DNA of 23,982 bases from a virus. Positions 6,716 through 23,524 of the stretch are shown one piece after another. The translations under genes were made by a program, and so were the position numbers. The stretch spans positions 1 to 23,982 of IMG/VR virus record IMGVR_UViG_3300027965_000018; one strand, given 5' to 3'. Numbering within the stretch: the first letter of the stretch is position 1; the number at the start of each line of letters is the position of its first letter. Under the pieces are notes generated by a model that was given only the letters and a program-made list of their open reading frames with translations, was not told the DNA's origin and did no database searches.

Positions 6716-8634
6716 GGGGCATTTGCCCTTGTCCTTCCAAAATCAGGCGTAATAACGTTTATGGTTCCGTAAGATGGCATCGGCACAAAAGGCGGATCGG
6801 TAATCTCGAAATCACCGTCCTGCGGATGTGATGTTAACTGGAATCGCGCATATACCCAGCGCGTCTCAAGACCCACTTTGATCTTGTAGCGGTTATCTGG
6901 ATTGTCGATTTCCACCACTTCCGTATTACGCGACTCAAAATCACTGAGTTGCAGTGTGGCTCTCACGGCCACGGATACTTGCACGTTCCCATCTCCCTGC
7001 CACTGGATGGAATCGAGCAATGGCTTTCCGTCTCCTGCGCCGATCAAAAAGATCGCGTCTCCAGTGTAGTTGTTCCCGTTATCCGAATTTCCATCTTCTA
7101 GCTGATACAAGTTGCCATCCGTCGCGCCAGTCCAGAGCCGCTCACGCCCATTCACATCGCGCACATTCTGCCTTGGGGTGTAACCAGAACCGATCATGGT
7201 ATTGGGCGACATGCCCGAGTAAATGGCTTCGTAGCCCTGCGCAATCGAATTACGGAAATCACGCAAACGAAAATCATGGAGAATCACAAAGGGGTTGCCA
7301 TTCGCGTCTTTCGCAAGGATGTAAATTCGGTCGATGCCAAGATCGATGTTGCGGTAGTACGCCAGTTCGACCTGTCCAATGAATTGATCCCCGATCCTTC
7401 CAAGCAGCGACGCCTCGTACTCTTCGCTGACCGGCGTCGGGCCGGTCCCGTTATAACCCATTAGCTGCTTGTCGGGAGTAACCCAATGCGGCCCATAGGG
7501 AGTATCGATCCATGCTCGCTGCCCGGCGCACCCGACATTCCAGATGGCACGCCAGGGATTCTGCCCCTGCTGGAACAAGAACAAAGACCAAATCGCCAGA
7601 TAGTTCTGGCTGAAAATCCATGCCTCCTGGTTGTAACCGTGTATCGTTGTCGGCACTTCTGCCGTAGGGAATGGTTCTACGTTGTCAGGTGGCCATGATT
7701 CCGCCGGGACACCAACATAAATTCCGTTGGTCAGGTTTGTGTCGTCCTCGGTGTAATATATGTTCACATCTCCAGGACGAATCCCAAAAATCTTGCTTCC
7801 GACTTTGGCAAAAGCATTCAAGCCGGAAATGGGCACACCGTTGCGGAACGGCAATTCCTGATTGGTGTCTATGACCGAGCTAATGATGGTGGCGGTGGTC
7901 GCCGTATTATTTGCCACCACGCGGTTTCCGTTTGCGTCAATCAGCCAATACGGAACTTGGCCGCCATCGTTTGTGCGTCCAAATCCCTTTACCCATTCTC
8001 CATTGATTCCAGAAAGGTCCGGGAGTCCGTTCACAAACAGCGCCGTCGTGGTTGTTCCTATGGTCACCGGATTGCCGATCGGGACACGGTTCCCAACCGC
8101 TCCGGTTACGGGGTTGAAATACACCATGAACAATTGGTAGCCCGAAAGGAGCGTGGTGGCAAAACTGGCGCTCGAATTACTTACTGCCGATACAGTGATC
8201 CCTGAAGTTTCCGCCGCGCTCGGTGGCCGTATGCCCACCGAGCGAAGGGTGGTGCCGTCCCAGCTCTCCAGGTCCTGCCCATTCCCTATAAAAATCCTAT
8301 TTGCGGCGCGGTAATACCCCCAAGGATTTCCTGTTGAAAGCGTGGCAATCGTAGTCGTAGTCCCGGTGCCAATTGCCACCTGCTTTAGCTGCGAACCCTG
8401 TCCGTACAGGACAAACTGGCTTCCTCCGTACTGCTGATAGTAGGCAGCCGAATGAATTGGCGCGGGAGTAGAAACCTGCGCCGGTTTTGTGTAGCCATAA
8501 CGCAAACGCAATTGTCCGGAGGGCAGCGGAGTGAAGTTCCGGCAGCGGAGAGAACGCTCCGGCGGATAATTCGCAGGATTGGACCTTGAATCCACTCCGC
8601 CAAGCGTGTACTGATCTGCCTTGCGCATTGCCAT
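6712..8634 (-). CDS. Large tail hub / nozzle-like structural protein, 640 aa
   Basis: This is the largest tail-region gene and follows the head-tail adaptor directly, 2 nt after its stop. The sequence is almost wholly beta-rich, with repeated blades such as FVLYGQGSQLKQVAIG, RIFIGNGQDLESWDG, AWIFSQNYLAIWS and RLWTGATDGNLYQLEDG. This is the look of a beta-propeller followed by a beta-barrel (about residues 540-640, containing VYARFQLTSHPQDGDFEI). Podoviruses place a beta-propeller nozzle or tubular protein B (gp12 of T7, gp10 of P22) directly after the adaptor, and size and order fit. The N-terminus, VDSRSNPANYPPERSLRCRN, resembles that family's start. Assignment rests on composition and synteny, not on a computed match. 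Confidence 0.8.
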   Translation of the reverse strand: MAMRKADQYTLGGVDSRSNPANYPPERSLRCRNFTPLPSGQLRLRYGYTKPAQVSTPAPIHSAAYYQQYGGSQFVLYGQGSQLKQVAIGTGTTTTIATLSTGNPWGYYRAANRIFIGNGQDLESWDGTTLRSVGIRPPSAAETSGITVSAVSNSSASFATTLLSGYQLFMVYFNPVTGAVGNRVPIGNPVTIGTTTTALFVNGLPDLSGINGEWVKGFGRTNDGGQVPYWLIDANGNRVVANNTATTATIISSVIDTNQELPFRNGVPISGLNAFAKVGSKIFGIRPGDVNIYYTEDDTNLTNGIYVGVPAESWPPDNVEPFPTAEVPTTIHGYNQEAWIFSQNYLAIWSLFLFQQGQNPWRAIWNVGCAGQRAWIDTPYGPHWVTPDKQLMGYNGTGPTPVSEEYEASLLGRIGDQFIGQVELAYYRNIDLGIDRIYILAKDANGNPFVILHDFRLRDFRNSIAQGYEAIYSGMSPNTMIGSGYTPRQNVRDVNGRERLWTGATDGNLYQLEDGNSDNGNNYTGDAIFLIGAGDGKPLLDSIQWQGDGNVQVSVAVRATLQLSDFESRNTEVVEIDNPDNRYKIKVGLETRWVYARFQLTSHPQDGDFEITDPPFVPMPSYGTINVITPDFGRTRANAP

Positions 8635-11350: not shown

Positions 11351-12565
11351 TCAGTTGTAACCGTTGACATTGTACAGACGGGCGTGGCGCTGCTCGAAGC
11401 GAATTACCCATGCGCCCTCGCACAGGTATTCATCCGAGTATTTGTCGCTGCCGTCCTTGATTACATCGGTCAGCAAATGCGTGTCGCGGTTCTCACCGTT
11501 GCCGACAAGTGGAGCGAATTCTAATGAATCCACGTCAATTGCATAGGCTTCATGTCCAGGACCGTTACCGCTCACCGGACCGTTGTCAAGCAACAGGTCT
11601 CGTGAGATGAGGAACTCTCCGTGTGAAGTCACATACCTGCGCACTTTCACTCCGTAAATTTCCTCGGATTGTTCGGTGCGCTGATGGCCGAGGGCAAAGT
11701 AGTCGAATGCGGAGATTACTCTCTTGGATGCAACCAGGAGCTTCTCGTTTCCCTGGAAGTAGGTGGAGAAGGCCATTTCCGCGAAGCTTTCCAGTCCGCC
11801 TTCGGTCAGCGTTGTGTTCGCGTTGTAAACGTTGGTCACGATTCGGGATTTGATTCCCATCGTCGTGCGAACCGTTCCGGGAGCGCCAAGAGCCAATGAC
11901 TCCGAAGGCCTGGAAAACAGAGCTGCTTGCTCCATTTGGCGGCGAATTTCCTCCAGCCCCTTCTGGCGCTGAAAAATTCGCTCATTCGACGGTCCGAATT
12001 GCGCTTGGGCGACCATTGATTTGGTGAGCTGAACAGGACGCCGGAAAATCTGTGTATAACTGATTTTCACTGACTTACTCGTTGAGCGCACCGTTCCAAA
12101 AGAATCGCCTTCGGCATATGCCGATGCAAGAATGCGGATATCGGAAGATGCCCCGATAGTGTCCGCTCCAGCGCCGCCAATGCCGCGAGTCAGGGTTACT
12201 GTATTGCCAGCGACGGCGGTTACGCGGGCAATTTCTTCCGCCGCCGAGCTGGCAGGAGCCTTGGGAATGGCAACCAGGTCGCCATAAGCAAACAGGGTTC
12301 CATCGACAACCGTGATGGACGTGGCAACCGAGCTGTAGTCGGTCGTGTTGTTTGCCTGGCCCCAGTACCCCACGTAGTCGTCTTCGATCCATTCCACGCG
12401 GGTTGATGCCGTTGTTTTTTTCCGATTACCGATCTTTGTCACTAAGGTCAGAATCGGAGTGAGATTCGGGTTGAAGAGAATATCTCTTTCCCCGAAAAAT
12501 ACTCGCTGTTGTACTGTTTCTTGAATTGCCTGGTCTACTGACCTTGGCACGGTGTTAATGGCCAT
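11351..12565 (-). CDS. Major capsid protein, SU10-like / DUF5309-type, 404 aa
   Basis: The ATG at 12565 is preceded by GGAG six bases upstream. The N-terminus contains FGERDILFNPNLTPILTLV and GNRKKTTASTRVEWIEDDYV. This is the typical start of SU10-type (DUF5309) HK97-fold capsid proteins, where a thermolabile interdomain segment and a WxED-like element follow the early Pro-rich loop. A beta-rich insert with a carbohydrate-like loop (GDLVAIPKAP, NTVTLTRGIGG) comes next, then a helical spine (NERIFQRQKGLEEIRRQMEQ) and a C-terminal domain ending in WVIRFEQRHARLYNVNGYN. It sits directly after the scaffold candidate and before the post-capsid hairpin, the classical place. Length fits the family. 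Confidence in the capsid role is high, in the exact family moderate. Confidence 0.87.
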   Translation of the reverse strand: MAINTVPRSVDQAIQETVQQRVFFGERDILFNPNLTPILTLVTKIGNRKKTTASTRVEWIEDDYVGYWGQANNTTDYSSVATSITVVDGTLFAYGDLVAIPKAPASSAAEEIARVTAVAGNTVTLTRGIGGAGADTIGASSDIRILASAYAEGDSFGTVRSTSKSVKISYTQIFRRPVQLTKSMVAQAQFGPSNERIFQRQKGLEEIRRQMEQAALFSRPSESLALGAPGTVRTTMGIKSRIVTNVYNANTTLTEGGLESFAEMAFSTYFQGNEKLLVASKRVISAFDYFALGHQRTEQSEEIYGVKVRRYVTSHGEFLISRDLLLDNGPVSGNGPGHEAYAIDVDSLEFAPLVGNGENRDTHLLTDVIKDGSDKYSDEYLCEGAWVIRFEQRHARLYNVNGYN

Positions 12566-12598: not shown

Positions 12599-13840
12599 TT
12601 AACGCCTTCTCATGAGCTGCTGTTTTACGGCTTCCGAGAAGTTACTCTTGGTTCCGGGCCCTCTCGTGATTTGGCCGATTATTTTTTCAGCCTCATTGAC
12701 CGGTCCGCTAAATCCGCCTTTTGGTTTTCCGGGAGCCACGCGCGAAGCCGCGACTTTCTTGGCGGTCTCCGCTGCCTGTTTTCTTCCAGTTTCCACTGCT
12801 TTCCGCACGACATCTGGATTTACTTGTTCGCCTTTGGCGATCTTGTAGGCAACCTCGATCTGCGCGGCATAATCAAGAACAGGGTCGTTGCCCTTCCCAG
12901 ATTTAACTGCGCTGATCCAAGGATTCGCCGCCATGACCTTTTTAAGGCGACCGCTCTCAACCATCTGCTCGAGGTCTGGATAGCGCATTTCTCCGGTGGC
13001 ATCCTTCAGGCTTTCCAGGTGCTCGAAAGCATTTGCTCGGATTGCCTCGGTGCGCGTCCTTCCCCAGACTGGATCACTGGCCAGATTGTTGTTGACCATG
13101 CCGAGAACCATCGGTGCGGCATCATCCAAGGCCAGCATGAACATCTCGTGAAACGCCGAAGTCAAATCATTTGCCTGCTCCTGGGAAATATTTCCCTTAA
13201 AGTCGGGCCACAATGCCTTGACGATTCTGTTGGACACGTGCATCGCTACTGCGGGATTCACGCGCCTCTTGGCGATTTCACCAATCTGGTTGAGATAGGC
13301 TTGAAACTGTTCTGGCGTCGGCGCATGCGCTTGGACCGGCTTTTCCTCGTCGGAAGCCTTGGCCTCGTCGGCCTTTTGCTCCATTGCCTTGCGCTCTTCT
13401 GCCTGGCGTTTCAGCGCCTCGCCGCGATCCATGATCTCTTTGAGCATGGCTCGGTGTGCGGGGTCTTGCGGGTCTAACTGGACTTTGTGCGTTTTGGAGT
13501 AATGCTGTGCGGCGCGTGCGTAAGCAGCATCGGAATAGTCGCGGTCAGTCTCCTGAAGAGCAAACTCGCCCTCTTCTTCCTCTGCTGCCTCTGTTGGCTC
13601 TGCTTCTTCCGCCTGTTCTTCCGGCTCGCTTGCGGGCACTTCCTCGTCGGATGCTTCCGCTATTTCTTCCGCCGGATCCGCACTGCTTTCCTCTTCGGCT
13701 ACTGGAACTTCTGCTTCCCGATTTGGCTCCTCTGCTTCTGTGGCCTCGGGTGCTTCTGTCTCAGCGCTTTGTCCGAGGACGGCTCTGACTATCGCCTCCT
13801 CGTTTGATCTATCCACTTCGCTCGTCGCTTGTAGATTCAT
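12599..13840 (-). CDS. Scaffolding protein candidate, 413 aa
   Basis: The ATG at 13840 follows AGGAG at six bases. Residues about 25-93 are dominated by Glu and Ala (for example AEEPNREAEVPVAEEESS and EEQAEEAEPTEAAEEEEG), a highly acidic disordered section. Residues about 127-163 form charged helices with coiled-coil character (MLKEIMDRGEALKRQAEERK). The C-terminus is basic (AVKQQLMRRR), as in scaffolds that bind the capsid through a basic helix. The gene is immediately upstream of the major capsid gene with 33 nt between. No protease motif was seen, so it does not look like a protease-scaffold fusion. Confidence 0.82.
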   Translation of the reverse strand: MNLQATSEVDRSNEEAIVRAVLGQSAETEAPEATEAEEPNREAEVPVAEEESSADPAEEIAEASDEEVPASEPEEQAEEAEPTEAAEEEEGEFALQETDRDYSDAAYARAAQHYSKTHKVQLDPQDPAHRAMLKEIMDRGEALKRQAEERKAMEQKADEAKASDEEKPVQAHAPTPEQFQAYLNQIGEIAKRRVNPAVAMHVSNRIVKALWPDFKGNISQEQANDLTSAFHEMFMLALDDAAPMVLGMVNNNLASDPVWGRTRTEAIRANAFEHLESLKDATGEMRYPDLEQMVESGRLKKVMAANPWISAVKSGKGNDPVLDYAAQIEVAYKIAKGEQVNPDVVRKAVETGRKQAAETAKKVAASRVAPGKPKGGFSGPVNEAEKIIGQITRGPGTKSNFSEAVKQQLMRRR

Positions 13841-13887: not shown

Positions 13888-13962
13888 TGGTGGCGGGATC
13901 AGGATTTGAACCTGAATTTGAAGGTCATGGGCCTTCCGAGTTTCCAGTTACTCCATCCCGCG
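13888..13962 (-). tRNA. tRNA with CAU anticodon, initiator-like (tRNA-Met)
   Basis: Reading the minus strand, a 75-nt cloverleaf is complete. Acceptor 1-7 is CGCGGGA against TCCCGCC. The D-stem is GAGT/ACTC with loop AACTGGAA. The anticodon stem is GAAGG/CCTTC around loop CCCATGA (CAT at 13927-13929). The T-arm is TCAGG-TTCAAAT-CCTGA. A73 and an encoded CCA follow. Initiator-type marks are the C1xC72 mismatch and the A11-U24 pair. Against a full initiator, the anticodon stem has only two of the three consecutive G-C pairs (29-31 is AGG), and position 33 is C rather than the near-universal U. It could instead be elongator Met or Ile2; the identity is unproven. Confidence 0.88.
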
Positions 13963-13973
13963 ACAATAATTCT

Positions 13974-14022
13974 GGGGCCGCGCCTGGCAGCTCACTCCGT
14001 GTCGTCGTTCGCTCGCGGCCCC
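13974..14022 (-). repeat. GC-rich inverted repeat between exported-protein gene and tRNA
   Basis: GGGGCCGCG at 13974-13982 and CGCGGCCCC at 14014-14022 are perfect inverted copies (9 bp) enclosing 31 bases. On the minus strand it lies 12 nt before the tRNA 5' end and after the stop of the 164-aa gene. No T-tract follows, so it is not a simple intrinsic terminator. A role in processing the tRNA out of the operon transcript, or as a structured element, is possible. Confidence 0.6.
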
Positions 14023-14025
14023 TTC

Positions 14026-14039
14026 CCGCCGGGAGGCGG
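14026..14039 (-). repeat. Small hairpin just downstream of the 164-aa exported-protein gene
   Basis: CCGCC (14026-14030) and GGCGG (14035-14039) pair around a four-base loop. It begins four nucleotides after the stop codon at 14044 and is followed by the larger inverted repeat. Together they may mark a transcript 3' end or stabilise the upstream message. No T-run is present. Confidence 0.45.
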
Positions 14040-14043
14040 AAAT

Positions 14044-14561: not shown

Positions 14562-15062
14562 TTACTGCTGGACGTAAGTAAGTACGCCTTGAATGTTTAC
14601 CGTAGTCCCCGCGCTTACCAGGCAGACCCCCGCGCCAACCGCCGAGCTAAAGGTTGATCCGGGATCGGCAAATGAGATGAACAGCGGCGGCGCTGCCGTT
14701 GTTAGATCGCCATTGCCGAATGTGCCTGTATTCGTAACCGTGTTGGTGCCGCAAGTCGGTCCGGTTCCGCTGATAAATTGTGCCGTATCCGCTGAAGTGG
14801 ACGACGGAGCAATTGTCAGTGAAGCTCCGCACACGAATACGGCCTCTCCCGCTGCCGGGGCAACAAGCTGTGTCGTTGTCGCCGTAGTGGCGTTTATGGG
14901 CACGCTGGATTTCGCGGTGAATTGCGAAAAGCATGGATCGGTGATAGAGGCTGGCTGATTTTGCGCGACTGTGTTTTCGGCCATGCCGCACAGGGCAATG
15001 ATCAGGATTGCCAGGAGCGGAACCGCGAACGCCAAAGCAATCGCCTTTTTTCTGTTTGTCAT
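14562..15062 (-). CDS. Exported small protein, signal/TM N-terminus, four mature cysteines, 166 aa
   Basis: The ATG at 15062 overlaps the methyltransferase stop by ATGA, so translation is coupled to the accessory cassette. Residues 1-6 are basic, and 7-26 form a strong hydrophobic segment (IALAFAVPLLAILIIALCGM) ending near an A-Q boundary (TVAQ). The mature domain is Thr/Ser/Ala-rich beta, with cysteines at 44, 78, 104 and 147 that could make two disulfides. The layout (TTTQLVAPAAGEAVFVCGA, then GTGPTCGTNTV, then GVCLVSAGTTVNIQG, ending TYVQQ) matches a common but uncharacterised family of secreted proteins found in phage contigs, as I recall it. It is adjacent to the 164-aa exported protein, and the two may act together. 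Function unknown. Confidence 0.75.
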   Translation of the reverse strand: MTNRKKAIALAFAVPLLAILIIALCGMAENTVAQNQPASITDPCFSQFTAKSSVPINATTATTTQLVAPAAGEAVFVCGASLTIAPSSTSADTAQFISGTGPTCGTNTVTNTGTFGNGDLTTAAPPLFISFADPGSTFSSAVGAGVCLVSAGTTVNIQGVLTYVQQ

Positions 15063-15667
15063 GTACTTACCTCACGGACTCCATAAGCTAGGCCTATCCT
15101 GTAGCTCCCCATTGGGAATATCAGTTGTTCTTTCAGCTTCATGCCGCCCAATTCAAACCATTCTTCAAGGTCATGCTCGCTGAAGCTCCACTGATGCTCT
15201 CCCGCAGAGAGCTCGGAATCCAATGGTTCATCGATAGGATGGGAAATCACGGCGGCATTGGCTATGCCAAGCCAATGCCGGACTTCTGCTTTAGGGTCGG
15301 CCAAATGCTCCAGAACCTCACACATCACAACGAGATCGGCTGGGGCAATGCGAATCGATCCGATTTCCTCGTTGTACAAAAACATTTTGGGGAATCGTTC
15401 TCGCGCTATGGCAACGGATTTTTCGTTGCATTCGATTCCTGTAACGATCCACCCTTTTTCAGAAAATGGCCCCGTAATGTCGGCGGTTCCGCAGCCGAGT
15501 TCTACAATGCGCGATCCCGGACTTAGGTGCCCAAGCGCCTTCGCAACAAATTCGCGGGATCGTTCGATGCGCGGCCTCTGAACCGGACAATCGGAATATA
15601 TGCGCGGGCCGACGTCGCGGTGATATCTGGCGCCTTCCGCCGCGCTGCGAATCTTCATCTCGCGCAT
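15059..15667 (-). CDS. SAM-dependent methyltransferase (class I, Methyltransf_23-like), 202 aa
   Basis: Motif I VELGCGTAD (residues 55-63) is the glycine-rich SAM loop. The acidic residue closing the second strand is in VTGIEC (E79), and the post-II region MCEVLEHLADP (115-125) is typical of the UbiE/methyltransferase-11/23 group that acts on small molecules or sugars. The C-terminus HQWSFSEHDLEEWFELGG resembles the substrate-domain cap of that group. The ATG at 15667 overlaps the previous gene by 13 nt, and the stop overlaps the next start by 4 nt. Context with glycosyltransferase and radical SAM genes suggests methylation of a sugar or glycan. No DNA-methyltransferase motif (DPPY/NPPY) is present. 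Confidence 0.88.
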   Translation of the reverse strand: MREMKIRSAAEGARYHRDVGPRIYSDCPVQRPRIERSREFVAKALGHLSPGSRIVELGCGTADITGPFSEKGWIVTGIECNEKSVAIARERFPKMFLYNEEIGSIRIAPADLVVMCEVLEHLADPKAEVRHWLGIANAAVISHPIDEPLDSELSAGEHQWSFSEHDLEEWFELGGMKLKEQLIFPMGSYRIGLAYGVREVST

Positions 15668-16065
15668 CGCGGCTCCTGCATGTCGAACGTAAGCTTGGCG
15701 GCGGGAAGATCGTCTCCCTTGCCATAATGGGCTATCACGGCTGGTTTTCCGTCAAAAACCAGGCCTGCCCAGTTTTTGGCATCGACTCGTTTTCCGTTCA
15801 AAACGCGGATTGCCTTGGCGCGGCGCCCAATCTCTTCAAGGCTTAAGTCTTGCCCGGCGCGTATCTGCCATTCCAGTTCGGCAATCGCCGAGTTTGCGAG
15901 TCCTAGCCGCGCTCCGGCAAGGAACAACTCCGCAGGGATGTTCCCGAATCGGTTGCGAAGCTCTTGTTCAATTTGCCGCAGGATTTCCTCGTCGCCGTGG
16001 CCATAGAGAACCTTTCGCGCCTCTATGGTGTACCTATCAAGCACTTCTCCGATATTCATTTCCAT
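15655..16065 (-). CDS. Hypothetical cassette protein, DUF6165-like by pattern, 136 aa
   Basis: The ATG at 16065 follows the radical SAM stop codon immediately (TAG-ATG). A second Met (MNIGEVLD) two codons later is an alternative start. The start MNIGEVLDRYTIEARKV and the later pieces AIAELEWQIR and AIRVLNGKRVDAKN resemble a family I recall as DUF6165, a small helical protein found in polysaccharide and glycosyltransferase clusters. The similarity is loose and uncomputed. The body is helical and charged. Its fixed place between radical SAM enzyme and methyltransferase implies involvement in the same process. Catalytic residues are not evident. Confidence 0.7.
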   Translation of the reverse strand: MEMNIGEVLDRYTIEARKVLYGHGDEEILRQIEQELRNRFGNIPAELFLAGARLGLANSAIAELEWQIRAGQDLSLEEIGRRAKAIRVLNGKRVDAKNWAGLVFDGKPAVIAHYGKGDDLPAAKLTFDMQEPRCAR

Positions 16066-17112
16066 CTACAACATCTCCGGCAGGGCTTCGTTTCCGACAA
16101 CATATTTCCTTACGGCGCGGTTGTAGTCGCACATCAGGCAGATGCGGCAAAGTCTTGGAACTATGGCCGCCGCCTTTTTTCGGTGTTCTTGCGATTGCCA
16201 AATATCGCGGAATCTCTTTTCATGCACGCTGCCGAATACAATGGTGCGCTGGTCACAGCATGCGGAAACATCCCCGTTCGCCCCAATCACGGCAAGGGTG
16301 TAGGCCGCGTAGCACTTATCAAACTCGCGCTGCGTGAAAACATCGTTTCCGCGCTTTCCGAGAATGCGTACGTCCAGTCTCGGGAACTTCTTTGCAACAT
16401 GCGCTATCAGCGCGGAGGCGGCATTCCAGTCGCCGTGCATGAACTGCCTTGTCTGCTCCGAAACGGGGCGGAAATGCACAAAATCCACTCCGCATTCCTG
16501 GGCCATTTCCAAGAACGGCAGAATGCTGTAGTAGGTCCTGTTACAGTCGGCAACGATGTAGGCAATTCCGATTTCAGGGCTCCGCTTATCGCCGCGAGCT
16601 TTCACAAGCGAACGGATATTCCCGACAACGCGCCTGAATTCTCCCGATTTGCTTCCGTGCATCTGCCGGTGCTCCGCATCGCATGAAGAATCTAGCGATA
16701 CGCGAATGTGATCCGCGCAATCCACCAGATAATCGGTCCAGCGGTCGATGAAACCGCCATGAGTAATCACGTTTGTTCTAAAGCCGTGGCGATGGGCTGT
16801 TTCGAGAAGCGGTCCGAAATCCCTGTGCAGCGTGGGTTCTCCGCCGCCGGAAAAATTTATAAGCCTGCAATCCATCTCGCGCAGATCGGATAGCACGCCT
16901 TCCGCAATGTCTTTGGGCAAGGTGTGCCGGTTTCCGGCGATTGTAGCTTTTCGGAAATCCAAAGGTTCGCACCACGGGCAGGCATGCGAGCATAAATTCG
17001 TCAAGTCAAGGTTCGCGCGTATCGGTCCCGGCGCATCCCCTTCCGGCTGAAGGCTCGCTTGTATCCGGTCATACCATCGCAGCACTCGCAGTTCTGAATA
17101 GCGTTCCATCAT
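16066..17112 (-). CDS. Radical SAM enzyme with SPASM-like C-terminus, 348 aa
   Basis: The canonical radical SAM cluster motif CxxxCxxC is present as CSHACPWC (C41, C45, C48), followed by the SAM-binding GGGEPT (89-94) and later strand ITHGG. The C-terminus carries extra cysteines: C267, then G280-x4-C285, and CRICLMC (C322, C325, C328). This resembles a SPASM/twitch auxiliary cluster domain, though the spacing CxxCxxC is not the textbook CX2CX5CX3C. Members of this group modify peptides, sugars or cofactors (for example sactipeptide maturases, anSME, and sugar-processing enzymes). No precursor peptide gene is obvious next door. The ATG at 17112 overlaps the glycosyltransferase by 4 nt. The substrate is unknown; a glycan or protein in the same cassette is plausible. 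Confidence 0.88.
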   Translation of the reverse strand: MMERYSELRVLRWYDRIQASLQPEGDAPGPIRANLDLTNLCSHACPWCEPLDFRKATIAGNRHTLPKDIAEGVLSDLREMDCRLINFSGGGEPTLHRDFGPLLETAHRHGFRTNVITHGGFIDRWTDYLVDCADHIRVSLDSSCDAEHRQMHGSKSGEFRRVVGNIRSLVKARGDKRSPEIGIAYIVADCNRTYYSILPFLEMAQECGVDFVHFRPVSEQTRQFMHGDWNAASALIAHVAKKFPRLDVRILGKRGNDVFTQREFDKCYAAYTLAVIGANGDVSACCDQRTIVFGSVHEKRFRDIWQSQEHRKKAAAIVPRLCRICLMCDYNRAVRKYVVGNEALPEML

Positions 17113-18107
17113 TGAACAGCCACGGGTATGGCAAGTTTCTCCATAATCACTTTCAGCCGGTTCTCCAGGCTATGATTCGCGTGCGCTTCCCGGCATCCAC
17201 TAGCGGCAATCATTTCTCTTTCCGCCGATTTTTCTTCGCTGGACCATTCCCGCAAAAGCTGCGCGACATACGGCAAATTGCTTGACCGGTAGTACACAAG
17301 GTGGTGCCCGCTGGTGAACGCAGCTTGGTTTTTAGCCACGCCCCTGTCCGCGCTCAGCATCGGCGTGAGCAAGAACGTTCCGCAGGCCATCACTTCGTAA
17401 ACCTTGGAAACCAGGCATTGCGACAGCGCCGGCAAATTGAAAAACACGCTAGTTCTCCGGTAGCAATCGGCCAGGCGCTTGGCGGATTCGAGCGCCTGGA
17501 ATCCCATTACATCAATCATCACTCCGCCTATGCGTATCGGCGGTATGGCATGCCTGCTGAGCGCCCGCAGGAATCGTGCGCGTTTCTCATAGATTCCGCC
17601 AATGAATGCTACGGGCCATTCTTTCTTCTCAAACCCGTCCGGCTTGAATACTTCCGTGTCCACGCCAAACGGGAGCCAGTGCGAATGCCCCTTGGCGAAA
17701 CTTTCTTGGTCGCAAAACTCCGCATCCTGTACTGCGGGGAAAAAGTATTCGTCGGCCCAGGGCTGTATCTGGTCGAACTGAATGCTGTAATCCTCTCGGA
17801 AAAGCGATTCGTGCAGCCATGCCGCTTTCCTTGCTTGCAGTTGTTTCCACTCGTATTTTCCGTATATCTCATCGAGCCACGGAATCAAGTGTTCCGGCCC
17901 GCTGATGAGAATGGCGTCCATAGACCGCAGATGTTCAAGGGCTGGCATCGTGACGCGAGCCGCTTCTATATCGGCGGCGCTCCCGGCGCCAGGGCGAATT
18001 GCCCCATCCGTCACAGCATGCCCCATCCTGCGCAATGTCGCCGGCAAACCGCCGCCCATGCTCCATGCCGCGCTTCTGTCTTTTGGATAAAAAACAGCGA
18101 TCCTCAT
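17109..18107 (-). CDS. GT-B fold glycosyltransferase (GT4 / CgeB-like), 332 aa
   Basis: The sequence begins MRIAVFYPKDRS with a Gly-rich N-terminal Rossmann start. A second Rossmann domain begins near WPVAFIGGIYEKRARFLRAL (164-183), and the donor-binding signature KVYEVMACGTFLLTP (235-249) is the hallmark of Glyco_trans_1_2/GT4 enzymes, including CgeB-like proteins. The terminal stretch (EREMIAASGCREAHANHSLENR) completes the C-terminal helix that packs back on the fold. The ATG at 18107 overlaps the 80-aa gene by ATGA, and its own stop overlaps the radical SAM start. Acceptor unknown; a phage or host surface glycan is the likely target. Confidence 0.87.
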   Translation of the reverse strand: MRIAVFYPKDRSAAWSMGGGLPATLRRMGHAVTDGAIRPGAGSAADIEAARVTMPALEHLRSMDAILISGPEHLIPWLDEIYGKYEWKQLQARKAAWLHESLFREDYSIQFDQIQPWADEYFFPAVQDAEFCDQESFAKGHSHWLPFGVDTEVFKPDGFEKKEWPVAFIGGIYEKRARFLRALSRHAIPPIRIGGVMIDVMGFQALESAKRLADCYRRTSVFFNLPALSQCLVSKVYEVMACGTFLLTPMLSADRGVAKNQAAFTSGHHLVYYRSSNLPYVAQLLREWSSEEKSAEREMIAASGCREAHANHSLENRLKVIMEKLAIPVAVQ

Positions 18108-23449: not shown

Positions 23450-23524
23450 TGGCAGGGGAGGAGGGATTTGAACCCCCATAGCCGGTTTTGGAGGCCGGAG
23501 TCCTAGCCGTTGGACGACTCCCCT
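23450..23524 (-). tRNA. tRNA-Trp (CCA anticodon)
   Basis: A complete cloverleaf is present on the minus strand. The acceptor is AGGGGAG/CTCCCCT, the D-stem GTCC/GGAC, and the anticodon loop CTCCAAA (CCA at 23489-23491). The T-arm GGGGG-TTCAAAT-CCCTC is followed by discriminator G73 and an encoded CCA. It resembles E. coli tRNA-Trp in acceptor and anticodon arm. The closing anticodon-stem pair is C31/A39 rather than U-A. It is the first gene after the leftward promoter and precedes terS by 42 nt. Confidence 0.93.

What the first reader, a model, noticed from the sequence alone, without database searches (positions are those of the whole stretch)
13888..13962. Phage tRNA-CAU with initiator-like features and C33
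The C1xC72 mismatch and A11-U24 pair are marks of bacterial initiator tRNAs, which phages rarely encode. It lacks one of the three anticodon-stem G-C pairs and has C at position 33, where U is nearly universal in bacteria and C33 is known from eukaryotic cytoplasmic initiators. It lies just upstream of the highly expressed scaffold and capsid genes, so it might boost late initiation.
Basis: partly seen in the sequence, partly recalled or inferred. Interest (0 to 1): 0.75.

Follow-up and report, generated by a model that had tools for sequence, protein, structure and literature searches.

The report
Phage initiator tRNA with altered anticodon loop
A soil virus of bacteria carries its own copy of the tRNA that starts every protein, just before its shell-building genes; the virus's version has an anticodon loop that bacteria almost never use, perhaps so that host enzymes that cut this tRNA cannot destroy it.

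Summary
The tRNA is real (minus strand, 13962 to 13888, CCA encoded) and belongs to the bacterial initiator class. It meets all three published initiator rules: 1:72 mismatch (C·C), A11:U24, and AGG/CCU at 29-31/39-41. An initiator profile scores it 34.2 bits against 4.5 for elongator-Met/Ile2.

The missing G-C pair is ordinary (522 of 4438 bacterial initiators). Phage initiators are not rare (345 isolate records). C33 is real but private to this phage, and recurs in about 5% of viral initiators.

All four other lineages of this phage family carry a tRNA at the same place, upstream of scaffold and capsid genes, also with G37. Their stems have changed widely (12 of 20 pairs changed on both sides, 99/100 cells still paired), yet 1:72 is mismatched in all five. 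G37 initiators occur in 16 distinct viral tRNAs; a stricter search of 84,980 bacterial species gave four, at least two of them phage-derived.

Best reading: a working late-expressed initiator tRNA whose loop changed to escape host anticodon-loop nucleases. Initiator class is well supported; the reason for the loop is inferred. A test for G37 pairing with base -1 gave no clear support.

The parts
13888..13962 (-). Initiator-class tRNA (CAU), 75 nt, CCA encoded (13888-13890); C1 at 13962, C72 at 13892, A73 at 13891
   Evidence: ARAGORN and Rfam; class by profile and published rules
13925..13931 (-). Anticodon loop CCCAUGA (32-38): C33 at 13930, anticodon CAU 13927-13929, G37 at 13926
   Evidence: sequence; G37 in all five lineages
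13974..14022 (-). GC-rich hairpin 11 nt before the tRNA, conserved in L016; terminator-like in L016 (GTTTTCT follows), not in the window
   Evidence: fold -40 kcal/mol for 13963-14043, z -3.2; alignment with L016
13853..13877 (-). Small hairpin between the tRNA and the scaffold gene's ribosome-binding site
   Evidence: fold, z -1.75, weak
12599..13840 (-). Scaffold-like ORF, 413 aa, ribosome-binding site AGGAG
   Evidence: position before the capsid gene; no family match; homologues in four lineages
11351..12565 (-). Major capsid protein, SU10 type
   Evidence: PF17236 E 5.8e-37; phrog_1328

Best explanation
The phage carries a working translation-initiator tRNA of bacterial origin, made with or just ahead of its late (capsid) transcript. 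Host enzymes would finish it: MetRS charges it (CAU, A73), the formylase recognises it (unpaired 1:72 with G2-C71, C3-G70) and IF2 places it in the P site (AGG/CCU stem). Its anticodon loop (C33, G37) differs from the near-invariant host loop CUCAUAA. The most likely reason is escape from host anticodon-loop ribonucleases, such as VapC toxins that cut initiator tRNA; the phage tRNA would then keep late protein synthesis going. Shown by sequence: the tRNA, its class, its conservation and place, and the enrichment of G37 in phages over bacteria. Inferred: expression, charging, use in initiation, and nuclease escape. I put initiator function at about 0.75 and the full chain with nuclease escape at the confidence given.
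For: Initiator class: profile 34.2 versus 4.5 bits, all three tabulated rules met. Selection on the fold and on the unpaired 1:72: 99/100 stem cells paired, 12 of 20 pairs changed on both sides, 1:72 unpaired in 5/5 as C·C, C·A or U·C. Conserved place before scaffold and capsid. G37 in 5/5 lineages, 16 distinct viral cases against 4 hits in 84,980 bacterial species, while the same strict pattern with A37 hits 131 of 299 Pseudomonadota genomes. VapC toxins cut initiator tRNA in the anticodon stem-loop and read both sequence and structure (PMC7180214; PMC8522696). Loop mutation as an escape route for phage tRNAs is proposed in PMC10264068.
Against: No expression or infection data; host unknown, so no nuclease is identified. 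PMC10264068 reports that phages tend to avoid encoding tRNA-fMet where VapC-LT2 is present. The twelve isolate-phage initiators that I read keep U33 and A37. A37 and U33 are thought to help decoding, so the changes could weaken it. L014 has an 8-nt loop and L016 a shrunken D-arm, which could mean decay in those lineages.
Confidence: 0.4

Rival explanations
1. A working initiator that simply adds initiator supply for the late burst; the loop changes are drift, tolerated because the host copy remains.
For: Conserved place in the capsid operon. Viral initiators vary at 32, 33, 37 and 38 and often lack the bacterial A11:U24.
Against: G37 is kept in 5/5 lineages although most stem bases have turned over; drift should have scattered position 37.
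Confidence: 0.3
2. Extended pairing: G37 pairs with C at -1, so the tRNA favours C-AUG starts of phage genes.
For: In the window 12 of 20 predicted ATG starts have C at -1. In GC-rich phages the excess of C at -1 over -2/-3 is 0.18 for G37 and 0.08 for A37 carriers (p 0.04, subset chosen afterwards).
Against: Raw C at -1 is the same (0.34 versus 0.33, p 0.88), and the overall excess gives p 0.19. L014's phage goes the other way.
Confidence: 0.08
3. Decoy or regulatory tRNA-like element (nuclease bait or processing signal in the late mRNA), not used in translation.
For: Very reduced form in L016 and 8-nt loop in L014; hairpins on both sides in the window.
Against: CCA, A73, CAU and the unpaired 1:72 are all kept, which a bait or a processing signal would not need.
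Confidence: 0.12
4. Remnant of integration into a host initiator gene (att site).
For: Many viral A37 initiators lie near contig ends, as integrated phages would show (26 of 91).
Against: This one is complete, diverged from any host copy, in the middle of the structural operon in five lineages; no capsid relative was found in the bacterial genome collection.
Confidence: 0.02

Closest known systems
Bacterial initiator tRNA (tRNA-fMet)
   Same: 1:72 mismatch, G2-C71/C3-G70/G4-C69, A11:U24, AGG/CCU stem, CAU, A73, encoded CCA, T-loop UUCAAAU
   Different: C33 and G37 in place of U33 and A37; shorter D-loop and variable loop; C·C rather than the usual C·A at 1:72
Initiator tRNAs of isolate phages (for example Sinorhizobium phages phiLM21 and phiM12, Mycobacterium phage Myrna, Caulobacter phage CcrColossus, Clavibacter phage CN1A)
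   Same: phage-encoded initiator-class tRNA, often near terminase or portal genes
   Different: the twelve read here keep U33 and A37; usually recorded only as tRNA-Met, and in CN1A, DoCa5 and R6L not annotated at all
Phage tRNAs proposed to escape anticodon nucleases (PMC10264068)
   Same: loop differs from the host tRNA while anticodon and fold are kept
   Different: that work is on tRNAs in large arrays of isolate phages with known hosts; for initiator tRNA it reports avoidance; no host or nuclease is known here

Membership tests
bacterial initiator tRNA | mismatch (or U:A) at 1:72 | tested here: met
   C·C; unpaired in 5/5 lineages; 98.6% of bacterial initiators mismatched, C·C in 90 of 4438
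bacterial initiator tRNA | A:U at 11:24 | tested here: met
   A11-U24 in the window; 4430 of 4438 bacterial initiators. In relatives: A:U in L015, not in L013, L014, L016
bacterial initiator tRNA | GGG/CCC or AGG/CCU at 29-31/39-41 | tested here: met
   AGG/CCU, the second commonest form, 522 of 4438
bacterial initiator tRNA | closer to initiators than to elongator Met or Ile2 | tested here: met
   34.2 versus 4.5 bits; best identity 0.77 versus 0.65
bacterial initiator tRNA | U33 and A37 in the anticodon loop (usual, not used in the published rules) | tested here: not met
   C33, G37; all listed Pseudomonadota initiators have U33, the pattern fixing A37; G37 in 4 hits of 84,980 species
bacterial initiator tRNA | charged with Met, formylated, used at start codons | not testable with these tools
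   needs experiment
elongator tRNA-Met or tRNA-Ile2 | paired 1:72 and C:G at 11:24 | tested here: not met
   C·C and A:U
nuclease-escaping phage tRNA (PMC10264068) | loop differs from the host tRNA at a nuclease recognition site | tested here: inconclusive
   loop differs from essentially all bacterial initiators, but host and nuclease are unknown

The most novel reading that the evidence does not exclude
Phages have repeatedly evolved a distinct kind of initiator tRNA, marked by G37, that replaces the host initiator during late infection: host initiator is cut or blocked while the phage tRNA, made from the capsid operon, survives and may favour particular starts. Translation initiation itself would then be switched to a viral part.
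Probability: 0.12. Interest if true: 0.85.

Novelty: new variant of a known kind. Interest (0 to 1): 0.5.

Why it matters
Initiator tRNA is the target of known bacterial toxins (VapC, AtaT), and whether phages answer with a resistant initiator is not known. A recurring, conserved G37 form in phages, near-absent in bacteria and placed in capsid operons, gives a concrete sequence to test. It would also show whether A37 and U33 are really needed for initiation.

Tried and rejected
(1) Elongator-Met or Ile2 class: rejected. (2) 'Lost G-C pair is odd': rejected, common natural variant. (3) C33 as the main clue: rejected, private to this phage. (4) G37 pairing with -1 C: tested on 18 G37 and 36 A37 phages or loci, no clear effect; a first pass with a cruder gene caller looked stronger and did not hold. 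(5) Antisense element: the hairpin 5' of the tRNA holds a stretch complementary to the canonical initiator D-arm (10 nt perfect against the panel in the window, 13 nt in L016; shuffles 49/1000 and 1/1000), but random window 50-mers reach the same scores, and a collection scan found no further related case (L260 holds no window homologue). (6) My first elongator pattern was one base short and found nothing; corrected. (7) No DNA relatives among 50,697 isolate-phage records. (8) The terminase search added partial relatives with no tRNA called, so they neither help nor hurt; those contigs end or diverge before the tRNA's place, except that L265 was not examined further.

Full report
OBSERVATION. 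ARAGORN and Rfam place one tRNA at 13888-13962, minus strand. Read 5' to 3' it is CGCGGGA TG GAGT AACTGGAA ACTC G GAAGG CCCATGA CCTTC AAAT TCAGG TTCAAAT CCTGA TCCCGCC A CCA. C1·C72, A11-U24, C33 and an A-U at 29:41 are there as stated. The same 75 bases occur in two further IMG/VR contigs from other metagenomes, so the odd bases are not errors of one assembly. The tRNA lies 47 nt before a 413-aa scaffold-like ORF and then the SU10-type capsid gene. The window is a 23,982-base virus fragment with no close isolate relative.

CLASS. PMC5143459 tabulates 4438 bacterial initiators. 1:72 is mismatched in 98.6% (C·C in 90). 11:24 is A:U in 4430. 29-31/39-41 is GGG/CCC in 3849 and AGG/CCU in 522. The window tRNA has C·C, A:U and AGG/CCU. 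Elongator Met and Ile2 almost never have any of these. A profile of 78 viral A37 initiators gives 34.2 bits and a profile of 23 bacterial elongator-Met/Ile2 sequences 4.5 bits (sequences; scores). One caution: the initiator training set was fetched with a pattern that fixes parts of the acceptor stem and T-arm, so the bit gap is somewhat flattering. The initiator call holds on the independent rules, and the 'missing' G-C pair is ordinary.

FAMILY. The capsid gene has relatives in four other contig lineages (65-75% identity). Gene order portal, glycosyltransferase, radical SAM, small genes, tRNA, scaffold, capsid is shared. ARAGORN calls the tRNA in L013, L014 and L015; in L016 I found a compact one by eye at 8556-8628. 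Across the five, aligned by hand, 99 of 100 stem cells pair and 12 of 20 pairs have changed on both sides (permuted mean 72, none of 10,000 as high). This shows that the fold is under selection. The 1:72 pair is unpaired in all five, as C·C, C·A and U·C. A73, CCA and G2-C71/C3-G70/G4-C69 are constant, and so is CAU, except that L014 has one extra base in its loop (TTCAATGA). Position 37 is G in all five. Position 33 is C only in the window phage. A11:U24 is in two of five, so that mark is not general in the family.

HOW UNUSUAL. In 84,980 bacterial species a stricter G37 pattern found four loci. L179 lies in a prophage-like stretch, L178 is an extra copy beside two normal ones and closely matches viral L047, L180 is one of two copies, and L177 may be a true host gene. 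The same strict pattern with A37 hits 131 of 299 Pseudomonadota genomes, and every listed match has U33. Initiator tRNAs as such are common in isolate phages: 345 of 50,697 records match the E. coli sequence (a few are evidently bacterial or prophage records), and the twelve that I read all have U33 and A37. C33 occurs in 5 of 91 viral A37 initiators. G37 initiators of unrelated phages also lie in capsid operons: L028 between the capsid/peptidase genes and the head-tail adaptor, L029 two genes before the capsid.

MECHANISM. [quoted passage not shown] that 2:71, 3:70 and 11:24 help formylation; and that the three G-C pairs serve P-site binding. All are met here but one G-C pair, which is a common natural variant. 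So a working initiator is likely (my estimate about 0.75). For the loop, the best available idea is nuclease escape. VapC toxins cut initiator tRNA in the anticodon stem-loop and read sequence as well as structure (PMC7180214; PMC8522696). PMC10264068 proposes that phage tRNAs escape such enzymes by loop mutations. Neither host nor enzyme is known here, so this step is inference.

TEST OF EXTENDED PAIRING. G37 could pair with C at -1 of the start codon. With a home-made gene caller, 18 G37 and 36 A37 phages or loci showed no difference in raw C at -1 (0.34 versus 0.33). A relative excess was seen only in a GC-rich subset chosen afterwards (p 0.04). I count this as not supported.

EXPRESSION SIGNALS. 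L013, L014 and L015 each have TACTAT 5-6 nt before the tRNA, which could be the -10 element of a promoter for tRNA plus capsid genes. The window lacks it and has a strong GC-rich hairpin there instead; the window scan found no minus-strand promoter-like site.

VERDICT. Two of the supporting arguments (lost G-C pair, rarity in phages) are not special, and the most telling feature is G37. It is a new variant of a known kind.

Noticed in passing
window 15059-18107: Methyltransferase, radical SAM/SPASM protein and glycosyltransferase genes sit between the portal-like gene and the tRNA, and are conserved in the relatives; a possible protein- or particle-modification cassette.
   Followed up: no
window 23450-23524: A tRNA-Trp (CCA) gene lies just before the terminase gene; Clavibacter phage CN1A also has tRNA-Trp beside an initiator tRNA before its terminase.
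   Followed up: no
L014 8346-8423: Initiator tRNA with an 8-nt anticodon loop (TTCAATGA), as in +1 frameshift suppressors, if it is not a sequencing error in a single contig.
   Followed up: no
L016 8556-8628: Compact tRNA with a 6-nt D-loop lacking G18-G19 and a T-loop lacking U55, not called by ARAGORN, but with intact acceptor, T-stem, CAU and CCA.
   Followed up: partly
window 13974-14022; L016 about 8461-8530: Conserved hairpin before the tRNA contains a stretch complementary to the canonical initiator D-arm (10 and 13 nt); significance weak.
   Followed up: yes
L013, L014, L015 just before the tRNA: TACTAT ends 5-6 nt before tRNA base 1 in all three; if a -10 element, transcription would start at about tRNA base 1.
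   Followed up: no
L045 6346-8062: A G37 initiator-like tRNA lies next to an RNA ligase gene (phrog_968), the kind of enzyme that mends cut tRNAs.
   Followed up: no
L180 1154-1230: Peptoniphilus genitalis has two near-identical initiator genes, one with A37 and one with G37; a natural bacterial test case.
   Followed up: no
L212 3001-3076, L213 1656-1731, L214 3001-3077: Initiator tRNA genes of phages CN1A, DoCa5 and R6L are not annotated in their records.
   Followed up: no
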